DNA of 64,000 nucleotides. Source: Chlorobiota bacterium (GTDB lineage Bacteria > Bacteroidota > Ignavibacteria > OLB7). The notes below the pieces were generated by a model. That model was not told the DNA's origin. It saw only the letters and a list, made by a program, of their open reading frames with translations, and did not search any database. How positions within the stretch are numbered: the first letter of the stretch is position 1; each line of letters opens with the position of its first letter. Below, one piece after another: positions 23,649 through 24,915 of this stretch. Location: positions 124,001 through 188,000 of the forward strand of contig JAQBOZ010000018.1 of assembly GCA_028287785.1 (NCBI GenBank). Reading direction: 5' to 3'. A program made the position numbers and the translations under genes.

Positions 23649-23799
23649 CGCGCAAGTCGAGGGGGCTGTTGTTCCCTGTCTTCGCGTTCTAACCTCTGAA
23701 CTATGCCCGCACAGCCGTCTCCGGCATGAGCGCGCAACGGGAATCGAACCCGTGACCTCGAAGGTTAATAGGTATGTAGGCCCCTTCCATCAGGGCGCG
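23649..23799 (-). ncRNA. Y RNA-like gene 1 (permuted tRNA mimic), proximal to rtcB
   Basis: Read on the minus strand, the 5' end CGCGC pairs with the 3' end GCGCG, followed by an internal loop and a second GGGGC/GCCCC stem: the expected Ro-binding stem. Inside lies a tRNA body in permuted order. T arm: ACGGG-TTCGATT-CCCGT at 23737-23753. Acceptor 3' strand TGCGCGC (23730-23736), a 19-base linker, then acceptor 5' strand GCGGGCA (23704-23710), pairing 6 of 7. D arm: GTTC-AGAGGTTA-GAAC with the GG pair. There is no anticodon arm in tRNA position. This is the YrlA-type layout, where the acceptor stem is capped by a loop. Confidence 0.75.
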
Positions 23800-23831
23800 G
23801 TGTTGTCAATTATTGAAAAGCATTCTCCATT

Positions 23832-23953
23832 CGCGCAAGTTGACTGGACATCTATGTCTAACCACTCCGCAGCGTCTGCCTGAAGGCGGACGGCGGGACT
23901 CGAACCCGCTAACTGCTCCCAGAGAGTATGTATGTCCGATCCATCGGGGCGCG
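23832..23953 (-). ncRNA. Y RNA-like gene 2 (permuted tRNA mimic)
   Basis: The ends pair as CGCGC/GCGCG and, after an internal loop (CCCGATGGATC against AGTCAACTT), as GGACAT/ATGTCC. The tRNA part has T arm GCGGG-TTCGAGT-CCCGC. An acceptor-like stem of 8 bp with one mismatch is capped by a TTCA tetraloop (CGTCCGCC / GGCAGACG). A Leu-like D arm follows (GCGGAGTGGTTAGAC). It is 122 bases long, shorter than copies 1 and 4 because its acceptor loop is only four bases. It is separated from copy 1 by 32 bases. Confidence 0.75.
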
Positions 23954-23995
23954 GGAGAAAAAAATTCACCGTTCATCAGATTCCGATATCCATCT

Positions 23996-24113
23996 CCGTG
24001 CAAATCCGTCAGGCCCTTTGCGTCTGCCAGTTCCGCCACGTCAGCCCGAAGGCGGACGGCGGGATTTGAACCCGCACACTGTGAGTGTGTATGCCCGGCG
24101 CGTGAGGGCACGG
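23996..24113 (-). ncRNA. Y RNA-like gene 3 (permuted tRNA mimic)
   Basis: Terminal stem CCGTGC/GCACGG, internal loop, then CGGGC/GCCTG. T arm GCGGG-TTCAAAT-CCCGC. The acceptor-like stem CGTCCGCC/GGCTGACG, with one mismatch, is capped by a stable TTCG tetraloop. The D arm TGGCGGAACTGGCAGACGC closely resembles that of tRNA-Leu. A seven-T run follows at about 23960-23966, a natural 3' end. It starts 66 bases after the stop of the small ubiquitin-like gene. Confidence 0.75.
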
Positions 24114-24179
24114 AGGAGATATCGGGATTTCATTGAGCCACGCCTTCTCATCGCATCATTTCAGCGTATCCGCGTTATC

Positions 24180-24380
24180 TCACCCGTAGACCGCTTCCGG
24201 CCTGATGATGATATCACCCGCCGGACGCCGGTCAATAACATAGAGTTCGAGATTCTTTGTTCCGGTCTCCAGAAACCGCGCAACACAATCCCTGATCTCG
24301 TCATCGCTCATACCAGCGGCAACGCCGGCATTCAGCTCGCTGAGGTCGTATGAACTTCCCTCGAATCGAATATGAATCAT
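24180..24380 (-). CDS. Putative ubiquitin-like (beta-grasp) protein, 66 aa, C-terminal Gly
   Basis: ATG at 24380 has GGAG seven bases upstream. The predicted order is strand MIHIRFEG, strand SSYDLS, helix SDDEIRDCVARFLE, strand LELYVIDRR and strand DIIIRP, finishing EAVYG. That strand-strand-helix-strand-strand pattern with a flexible end in Gly fits ubiquitin-like modifiers activated by ThiF/E1 enzymes, and such an enzyme is encoded in the same cluster at 18631-19269. There is a single Gly rather than the usual GG, as in some MoaD/ThiS-like and prokaryotic modifiers. Sequence identity to ubiquitin is not visible, so this is a structural guess backed by context. It lies between Y RNA-like genes 3 and 4. 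Confidence 0.6.
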   Translation of the reverse strand: MIHIRFEGSSYDLSELNAGVAAGMSDDEIRDCVARFLETGTKNLELYVIDRRPAGDIIIRPEAVYG

Positions 24381-24439
24381 GGTTTTCTCCTTTTTCATCG
24401 CATTTATTGAAATCATCGAATTCCGATACCCCATCAATG

Positions 24440-24514
24440 AAAAGCGCCCACCGGACTGAGTCAGGTGGGCGCTTTTCAGGCTCATACAGATCCGGCTTTT
24501 CAGGCCGGCCCACC
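24440..24514 (-). promoter_or_regulatory. Attenuator-like RNA element, copy R1, upstream of the ubiquitin-like gene
   Basis: On the minus strand three segments, GGTGGG (24509-24514), CCCACC (24464-24469) and GGTGGG (24447-24452), can pair in two exclusive ways. The middle can pair with the first, closing a branch that includes a CCGGC/GCCGG hairpin. Alternatively the middle and last form a 13-bp terminator-like hairpin (24440-24452 with 24464-24476). It lies 60 bases before the start of the 66-residue protein. A second copy lies at 24953-25035. Confidence 0.55.
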
Positions 24515-24764
24515 TCTGGTTGTAGTGAAACTGCGATCATTCTTCCCCGTGAACATACCAAGCCACTCCTCAAGCCGGACGACCTGAAGCAGCGCCCATG
24601 TCTGGGCTGCCGATGGGCTGGGATATATATAAACGTTTTTCATGTTTCCCTGTTAAACACGCATCAGATCGTGAATGTTACGTCCGCCGGAAAGTTTTTT
24701 TCACCTCTATATATCCGGCGAATTTTTGCGATCAAAAAATCGATCCATTGAACCATCTCCCCTC

Positions 24765-24915
24765 CGCGCAAGTCTGGCAGGCAGTTTTTACTGGTGCTCT
24801 ACCATTTGGAGCTACGGGCCCGTAATCATTGCCGGTGCTGTGGACCCGAAGGGACTCGAACCCTCAACCTCCCGCGTGCAAGCGAACGTATGTATGCCTC
24901 TCATGTAAGGGCGCG
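24765..24915 (-). ncRNA. Y RNA-like gene 4 (permuted tRNA mimic), distal copy
   Basis: This copy has the cleanest tRNA body. Acceptor strands GGGCCCG and CGGGTCC pair at all seven positions with one G-T, in permuted order around a 20-base linker. T arm GAGGG-TTCGAGT-CCCTT; D arm GCTC-CAAATGGTA-GAGC. The ends pair as CGCGC/GCGCG, an internal loop follows, then GGCA/TGCC. The 5' segment GGCATACATAC is shared with the other copies. A six-T run (24734-24739) follows downstream. It is separated from the other three by the attenuator-like element and the ubiquitin-like gene. Confidence 0.77.

What the first reader, a model, noticed from the sequence alone, without database searches (positions are those of the whole stretch)
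23649..24915. Four different bacterial Y RNA-like genes built as permuted tRNAs
Each element (23649-23799, 23832-23953, 23996-24113, 24765-24915) shows on the minus strand a T arm, then the acceptor 3' strand, a loop, the acceptor 5' strand and a D arm, with a terminal stem (CGCGC/GCGCG or CCGTGC/GCACGG) and an internal loop. The D loops keep GG and the T loops keep TTCRA. Two copies cap the acceptor with a tetraloop (TTCA, TTCG) and two with a 19-20-base loop. Known bacterial Y RNAs (YrlA) mimic tRNA in just this permuted way and bind Ro. Four dissimilar copies in one locus is unusual and suggests independent tRNA-derived specificities.
Basis: partly seen in the sequence, partly recalled or inferred. 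Interest (0 to 1): 0.92.

Follow-up and report, generated by a model that had tools for sequence, protein, structure and literature searches.

The report
Ro-bound RNAs mimicking tRNA and rRNA
The four small RNA genes are real and belong to a previously unnamed family, found next to a distant relative of the human Ro60 protein in bacteria, mainly cyanobacteria, and in huge viruses; each RNA has the same predicted Ro-binding handle but a different imitation tRNA or ribosomal RNA on top, which may serve to decoy or repair enzymes that attack the cell's protein-making machinery.

Summary
Confirmed, and larger than reported. The four minus-strand elements exist as described. They share a fixed handle: a 5-bp stem, a CCYNAYN / RAYTT internal loop, an 8-bp stem, then UACAYAC. 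On it sits a T arm–acceptor–D arm permuted tRNA. Only these four occur in this genome. Next door lie RtcB and a protein with no TROVE Pfam hit but a predicted Ro60 fold (Z 22 to 1YVP over 437 residues). Rfam YrlA scores 35.8 and 25.5 bits, below its 69-bit cut-off.

80 related Ro loci (mostly cyanobacterial) hold about 240 more RNAs with this handle, all on the Ro strand (1 in a random-sequence control). Multi-copy arrays are the norm, and the cargo varies: permuted tRNAs, non-permuted tRNA bodies with intact anticodon arms, 23S rRNA pieces (H69–71; sarcin–ricin loop plus GTPase centre), or nothing. The cassette also has a 66-aa ubiquitin-like protein ending in invariant Gly, a ThiF-type E1 and a 299-aa protein; it recurs in huge phages.

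Most likely, Ro displays mimics of translation RNAs. That they are decoys or adaptors against RNA-cleaving toxins is inferred. No paper I could search reports rRNA-mimic or anticodon-bearing Y RNAs; the key Y RNA papers were not held.

The parts
24765..24915 (-). Y1: Y-RNA-like gene, permuted tRNA cargo (best host match tRNA-Met/Arg), 20-nt acceptor cap
   Evidence: End module and stems; Rfam YrlA 35.8 bits, sub-threshold; tRNA match 36.5 vs shuffle max 24.3; acceptor 7/7
23996..24113 (-). Y2: Y-RNA-like gene, permuted tRNA-Leu-like cargo, TTCG acceptor cap; terminal stem CCGTGC/GCACGG covaries
   Evidence: (38.4 vs 26.8)
23832..23953 (-). Y3: Y-RNA-like gene, permuted tRNA cargo related to Y2, TTCA acceptor cap
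   Evidence: (30.2 vs 27.0, identity ambiguous)
23649..23799 (-). Y4: Y-RNA-like gene, permuted tRNA cargo (His/Gly-like), 19-nt acceptor cap holding a GCCG-GAGA-CGGC hairpin
   Evidence: (33.2 vs 26.1); Rfam YrlA 25.5 bits, sub-threshold
22268..23506 (-). RtcB RNA ligase
   Evidence: Pfam PF01139 E 1e-130
20676..22130 (-). Divergent Ro60-fold protein (HEAT-like ring plus vWA with DxSGS MIDAS motif), likely binder of the four RNAs
   Evidence: AF2 pLDDT 84.8; best PDB matches are all Ro/TROVE, 1yvp Z 22.2 over 437 residues, 2nvo over 438; no TROVE Pfam/NCBIfam hit
24180..24380 (-). 66-aa ubiquitin-like protein (Ubl) between Y1 and Y2, invariant C-terminal Gly
   Evidence: Homologues of exactly 66 aa ending in Gly in 66 of 66 loci
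19409..20308 (-). 299-aa conserved partner protein, invariant C279, possible OB-fold part
   Evidence: Homologues in about 50 cyanobacterial loci and 10 phage loci; fold weakly OB-like
18631..19350 (-). ThiF/E1-like adenylyltransferase of the cassette
   Evidence: Pfam PF00899 E 4e-21; homologues in about 50 related loci
24947..25040 (-). Attenuator-like element upstream of Y1 (GGTGGG / CCCACC / GGTGGG)
   Evidence: Fold z -4.9; one of only two copies in the genome
24440..24520 (-). Second attenuator-like element, upstream of Ubl-Y2-Y3-Y4
   Evidence: Fold z -4.1; second of two copies

Best explanation
The four RNAs are the RNA parts of a divergent Ro60 ribonucleoprotein. Each carries a common handle (lower stem, asymmetric internal loop, second stem, UACAYAC) that the Ro ring is expected to grip, and holds up a different mimic of a translation RNA; in this genome the mimics are permuted tRNAs showing the acceptor, T and D arms. 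The Ro-Y particle lets the cell present many imitation targets to enzymes that recognise, cut or repair tRNA and rRNA. The likeliest purpose is to decoy RNA-cleaving toxins or hand over the damage they cause, with repair by RtcB here, and with spare tRNAs and translation factors in cyanobacteria. Shown: the elements, the conserved handle, the mimicry of tRNA/23S rRNA, the Ro fold and the conserved gene cassette. Inferred: that the RNAs are made, that Ro binds them, and the decoy/repair purpose.
For: Handle conserved and base-paired in 267 elements chosen by sequence alone, always on the Ro strand. Ro fold. 93 of 98 non-permuted cargoes are called tRNA by ARAGORN once a generic acceptor is added, 0 of 98 shuffled, and several exceed Rfam's tRNA cut-off as they stand. 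Anticodon loops keep U33 in 83/96 and a purine at 37 in 90/96. 23S mimics: H69-71 in 21 loci, SRL plus GTPase centre in 25, confirmed against host 23S genes. RtcB adjacent in the window and two relatives. In cyanobacterial loci: L7/L12, EF-Ts, EF-Tu, RNA ligase and KptA paralogues and long tRNA arrays. Cassette with JAB in huge phages.
Against: No transcription or binding data. The P-type RNAs of this window lack an anticodon loop, so they cannot be decoys for anticodon nucleases; they could decoy only enzymes that read the acceptor or elbow. RtcB is absent beside the cyanobacterial Ro genes (0 of 80). The published role of a Y RNA (YrlA) is to tether PNPase to Rsr and gate it (reported in PMC8394870 and PMC7790460), not decoy. 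That anticodons differ within a locus is not significant (P 0.13).
Confidence: 0.5

Rival explanations
1. RYPER-like tether and gate: the tRNA-like head of each RNA recruits PNPase or another tRNA-binding or modifying enzyme to the Ro ring, giving several particles with different partners; toxins play no part.
For: This is the reported role of Rsr and its Y RNA in Deinococcus (PMC7790460, PMC8394870), and YrlA is modified by DusA and TruB through its tRNA mimicry (PMC8394870). The window RNAs have the same T-acceptor-D order.
Against: Does not explain 23S rRNA mimics or the display of many different anticodons.
Confidence: 0.28
2. Repair scaffold or sensor: the mimics bind the repair enzymes (RtcB, RNA ligase, KptA) or compete with broken tRNAs on Ro, so that Ro-Y particles measure or direct RNA repair. 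Permuted tRNAs, opened where the anticodon loop would be, would imitate cut tRNAs.
For: RtcB adjacent in three loci; RNA ligase and KptA in some cyanobacterial loci; the Salmonella rsr-yrlBA-rtcBA operon responds to tRNA fragments (PMC7790460).
Against: No RtcB beside most members; no ends or cut sites present in the mimics.
Confidence: 0.17
3. The elements are decayed or rearranged tRNA genes without function.
For: tRNA-derived sequence; long tRNA arrays lie next to some members.
Against: Handle pairing conserved in hundreds of copies, canonical anticodon loops, rRNA-derived copies, constant association with Ro.
Confidence: 0.03

Closest known systems
[quoted passage not shown]
   Same: Terminal stem, asymmetric internal loop, second stem, 3'-strand ACUUG, then T arm-acceptor-D arm; encoded beside Ro and RtcB
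   Different: Scores far below Rfam gathering (35.8/25.5 vs 69 bits); many copies per locus; UACAYAC motif; other members carry anticodon-bearing tRNA bodies or 23S rRNA pieces
Ro60 / Rsr (TROVE proteins; 1YVP, 2NVO)
   Same: HEAT-like ring plus vWA domain with MIDAS, matched over 437-438 residues
   Different: About 15% identity; no TROVE Pfam or NCBIfam hit
RtcBA RNA-repair operon with Ro and Y RNA (Salmonella; PMC7790460)
   Same: RtcB, Ro-fold protein and Y RNAs side by side
   Different: Divergent Ro, four Y RNAs, plus Ubl/ThiF/299-aa genes; RtcA and RtcR not assessed
Operon type 6d / PRTRC ubiquitin-like systems (PMC1779556)
   Same: Small Ub-like protein with C-terminal Gly, E1-like ThiF, JAB (the last only in the phage versions)
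   Different: Ro and Y RNAs in the cassette; NCBIfam PRTRC ThiF model only 36 of 145 bits; 299-aa protein is not a recognisable E2
Ro/TROVE proteins of jumbo phages (PMC7824862; Thermus phage phiLo Ro60, 9L5Y)
   Same: A Ro-fold protein in large phages, with tRNA genes nearby
   Different: The phage members found here belong to the window's subfamily (40-72% identical to the LR756511.1 protein, which is 47% identical to a cyanobacterial member) and bring Ubl, JAB, ThiF and Y RNAs

Membership tests
YrlA (RF02553) | Covariance-model score at or above gathering (69 bits) | tested here: not met
   35.8 and 25.5 bits; none at gathering in four cyanobacterial loci
YrlA (RF02553) | Terminal stem, asymmetric internal loop and second stem | tested here: met
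YrlA (RF02553) | tRNA-like domain in the order T arm, acceptor, D arm | tested here: met
   All four window elements
YrlA (RF02553) | Encoded beside a Ro-family protein | tested here: met
Bacterial Y RNA (in general) | Bound by the Ro protein in the cell | not testable with these tools
   Needs pull-down or in vitro binding
Bacterial Y RNA (in general) | Expressed as a small RNA | not testable with these tools
   No transcript data available
Ro60/TROVE | HEAT-like ring plus vWA fold along the whole protein | tested here: met
   1yvp Z 22.2, rmsd 4.0, 437 aligned; first non-Ro match covers only about 160 residues, the vWA domain
Ro60/TROVE | Match to Pfam TROVE or an NCBIfam Ro model | tested here: not met
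   Only weak vWA hits; PDB sequence profile best hits are TROVE proteins at E 0.029
Ro60/TROVE | MIDAS DxSxS motif in vWA | tested here: met
   D303-K-S305-G-S307; D303, S305 and S307 invariant in 24 sequences
RtcB repair operon | RtcB ligase encoded adjacent | tested here: met
RtcB repair operon | RtcA cyclase and RtcR regulator adjacent | not tested
   None was recognised among the neighbours examined, but the whole window was not annotated
Prokaryotic Ub-like system type 6d/PRTRC | Ub-like protein with C-terminal glycine and E1-like partner | tested here: met
   (fold of the 66-aa protein itself was not predicted)
Prokaryotic Ub-like system type 6d/PRTRC | JAB peptidase in the operon | tested here: not met
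   Phage JAB has no homologue in the window or the cyanobacterial loci; present in 10 of 10 phage loci
Prokaryotic Ub-like system type 6d/PRTRC | E2-like protein | tested here: inconclusive
   299-aa model (pLDDT 75) gives only weak OB-fold matches

The most novel reading that the evidence does not exclude
A modular Ro-scaffolded immunity (or, in phages, counter-immunity) system: one ring protein with a genomic library of decoy RNAs that together imitate the main targets of translation-attacking toxins (many tRNA anticodon arms, tRNA acceptor halves, 23S H69-71, the sarcin-ricin loop and the GTPase centre), coupled to RNA repair, spare translation parts and a ubiquitin-like modifier, and carried by both bacteria and huge phages.
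Probability: 0.4. Interest if true: 0.97.

Novelty: new variant of a known kind. Interest (0 to 1): 0.9.

Why it matters
Bacterial Y RNAs are known as a single tRNA-mimic fold with a tethering role. Here one Ro-type handle carries a whole library of mimics, including intact anticodon arms and pieces of 23S rRNA at sites known as ribotoxin and factor targets, next to RNA-repair and ubiquitin-like genes. It makes the long-open question of what Ro particles are for directly testable: do they shield or help repair the translation machinery under toxin or phage attack? Its presence in huge phages suggests both sides of the conflict use it. It also gives a family, absent from Rfam and Pfam, that annotation pipelines partly mislabel as tRNA genes.

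Tried and rejected
Single-sequence folding of the four RNAs: not better than shuffles (z -0.3 to -1.7), so not used as support; minimum-energy folds keep the T arm and acceptor in Y3 and Y4 but not in Y1. Rfam gathering scan and ARAGORN of the window: nothing. Viral contigs by DNA pattern: 58 hits, 2 passed the structural scanner, both judged chance; phage members were found by protein instead and use the variant core TACAAAC. Test that anticodons within a locus avoid each other: all differ in 20 of 20 loci, but shuffled labels give 18.2, P 0.13, so not claimed. One insert type (L063 7951, L020 9196, L017 4841, L199 11797) found no identity in Rfam or the host genome. The 299-aa protein as an E2: fold search gave only weak OB-fold matches. 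My first unselected stem test had a length error and was redone. The class counts rest on simple rules and a few cargoes may be misfiled. Key papers (Chen 2014, Wang 2018, Sim & Wolin 2018, Sim 2020, and an attempt at Burroughs & Aravind 2016) were not in the library, so prior description there cannot be excluded.

Full report
What was checked. The four elements at 23649-24915 are present on the minus strand exactly as described. ARAGORN and Rfam at curated thresholds call nothing in the window; in a permissive scan, and genome-wide, the two best YrlA matches are Y1 (35.8 bits) and Y4 (25.5 bits), well above the next (18.1, overlapping ordinary tRNA genes) but far below the 69-bit cut-off.

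The handle. 5' CGYGC | CCYNAYN | 8-nt stem strand | MTACAYAC ... 8-nt stem strand | RAYTT | GCRCG 3'. Stem 1 pairs 5/5 in all four and stem 2 pairs 6-7 of 8. In this genome the pattern matches only these four places plus two unrelated partial matches. Between the strands sits the permuted tRNA: T arm, acceptor 3' strand, cap, acceptor 5' strand, D arm.

The neighbours. On the same strand follow RtcB (Pfam E 1e-130) and a 484-aa protein with only weak vWA hits and no NCBIfam name. Its AlphaFold model (pLDDT 84.8, 24-sequence alignment) matches Ro/TROVE structures first and along its whole length: 1YVP Z 22.2 over 437 residues, Rsr 2NVO Z 19.7 over 438; the first non-Ro match covers only about 160 residues of the vWA domain. 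So a Ro-fold protein, diverged beyond the TROVE profile, is encoded next to the RNAs.

Relatives. A same-genus genome has the Ro at 60% identity with at least two such RNAs and an RtcB; a genome from another family of the phylum has Ro, two RNAs and RtcB. A scan of species genomes found 191 relatives, nearly all listed ones cyanobacterial. In the 80 fetched loci, the window and the two relatives, a structural scanner finds 250 elements against 1 in a Markov control. Because that scanner requires pairing, I repeated the test with sequence motifs only: 267 candidates, stem 1 pairing 4.73/5 and stem 2 6.84/8, against 2.72 and 3.22 at random RAYTTG sites, and 263 of 263 outside the window on the Ro strand.

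What the relatives carry. By simple rules the cargoes are: 98 non-permuted tRNA bodies (D arm, anticodon arm, variable region, T arm) in which CAUAC/GURUG stands in for the acceptor stem; 60 permuted tRNAs; 35 short ones without cargo; 21 with 23S rRNA H69-71 sequence (AACGGYCCTAAGGTAG); 25 with the sarcin-ricin loop AGTACGAGAGGA plus the GTPase-centre region. ARAGORN accepts 93 of 98 non-permuted bodies once a generic acceptor stem is added and 0 of 98 shuffled ones; Rfam's tRNA model accepts several unmodified. Anticodon loops keep U33 in 83 of 96 and a purine at 37 in 90 of 96. The rRNA identity is confirmed against host genes that Rfam calls LSU rRNA; the sarcin-ricin 12-mer is recognised from established knowledge of 23S rRNA, because the fetched rRNA pieces end before it. 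Permuted cargoes pair 7/7 acceptor bases in 45 of 52.

Which tRNAs the window copies resemble. Against this genome's own tRNA genes, Y1 is closest to Met/Arg, Y2 to Leu, Y4 to His (Gly next) and Y3 is ambiguous; all exceed shuffled controls. Y2 and Y3 are related to each other; the others are not clearly so.

A conserved cassette. The window also encodes, between Y1 and Y2, a 66-aa protein whose homologues are exactly 66 aa with a C-terminal glycine in 66 of 66 loci, plus a 299-aa protein (19409-20308) and a ThiF/E1-like protein (18631-19350). In 48 cyanobacterial loci with full flanks these occur in 43, 35 and 35, always on the Ro strand. This resembles the type 6d prokaryotic ubiquitin-like systems of Iyer et al. 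2006 (PMC1779556), though the 299-aa protein is not recognisably an E2; its model has weak OB-fold similarity. RtcB adjoins Ro only in the window and its two relatives. In cyanobacteria the loci instead hold, in varying numbers, L7/L12 (27 of 80), KptA (9), EF-Ts (6), RNA ligase (6) and EF-Tu (4, one of them a weak match) relatives, and 10 of 80 have arrays of 19 or more tRNA genes.

Phages. A 595-kb uncultured phage (LR756511.1) carries a homologue 47% identical to a cyanobacterial Ro of this family, with Ubl, 297-aa, JAB and ThiF genes. Nine IMG/VR contigs carry Ro, 299-aa, JAB and ThiF; five also have Ubl. In these ten phage loci, 13 handle-bearing RNAs, mostly with the variant core TACAAAC, are found, all on the Ro strand, and none in ten Markov controls. 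An H69-71-like copy in LR756511.1 is likely, but its 3' end is not clear.

Reading. Identity as the RNAs of a Ro-type particle is strong (about 0.93) on sequence evidence, though expression and binding are untested. Function is inferred. The range of mimics (tRNA anticodon halves, tRNA acceptor halves, and 23S sites known as targets of toxins and elongation factors) together with repair enzymes, spare tRNAs and factors, and carriage by phages, fits decoy or damage-handling of translation RNAs best (about 0.45-0.5). The known tether role of Y RNA with PNPase (PMC7790460, PMC8394870) is the main rival. The family fails Rfam's YrlA threshold and is therefore described as YrlA-like, not YrlA.

Literature. 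Ten searches of open papers found tRNA mimicry by YrlA and Ro in jumbo phages (PMC7824862), but nothing on rRNA-mimic or anticodon-bearing Y RNAs. The central reviews were not held.

Noticed in passing
window 24947-25040 and 24440-24520 (-): Two similar attenuator-like elements (GGTGGG hairpin, CCCACC, GGTGGG, T run) flank Y1; the only two in the genome, z -4.9 and -4.1.
   Followed up: partly
window 23539-23597: Long inverted repeat GGCGCGACCG...CGGTCGCGCC between Y4 and RtcB, possibly a terminator or control site.
   Followed up: no
L063 7951, L020 9196, L017 4841, L199 11797: A further cargo type (ACGCTGCAAGCC...GGCA) on the same handle with no identified parent RNA.
   Followed up: partly
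L198 8016-8140 and 8275-8400: Phage tRNA-like genes with intact acceptor ends in which the Ro handle is inserted inside and capped by a GAAA loop: the reverse permutation.
   Followed up: partly
L063 2158-5480, L085, L093, L199 7450-10973: Long tRNA arrays beside or interleaved with these RNAs; annotation tools call the non-permuted ones tRNA genes.
   Followed up: partly
L063 6615 (EF-Tu), L015 6994 (L7/L12), L021 11592 (EF-Ts), L063 12623 (KptA): Extra copies of translation factors and a tRNA repair enzyme inside cyanobacterial Ro loci.
   Followed up: partly
L072 7972, L076 9377: Small inserted sequences interrupt the T loop of two cargoes, probably mobile repeats.
   Followed up: no
window 24498-24641 (-): 47-codon ORF (MKNVYIYPSPSAAQ...) between Y1 and the Ubl; status unknown.
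   Followed up: no
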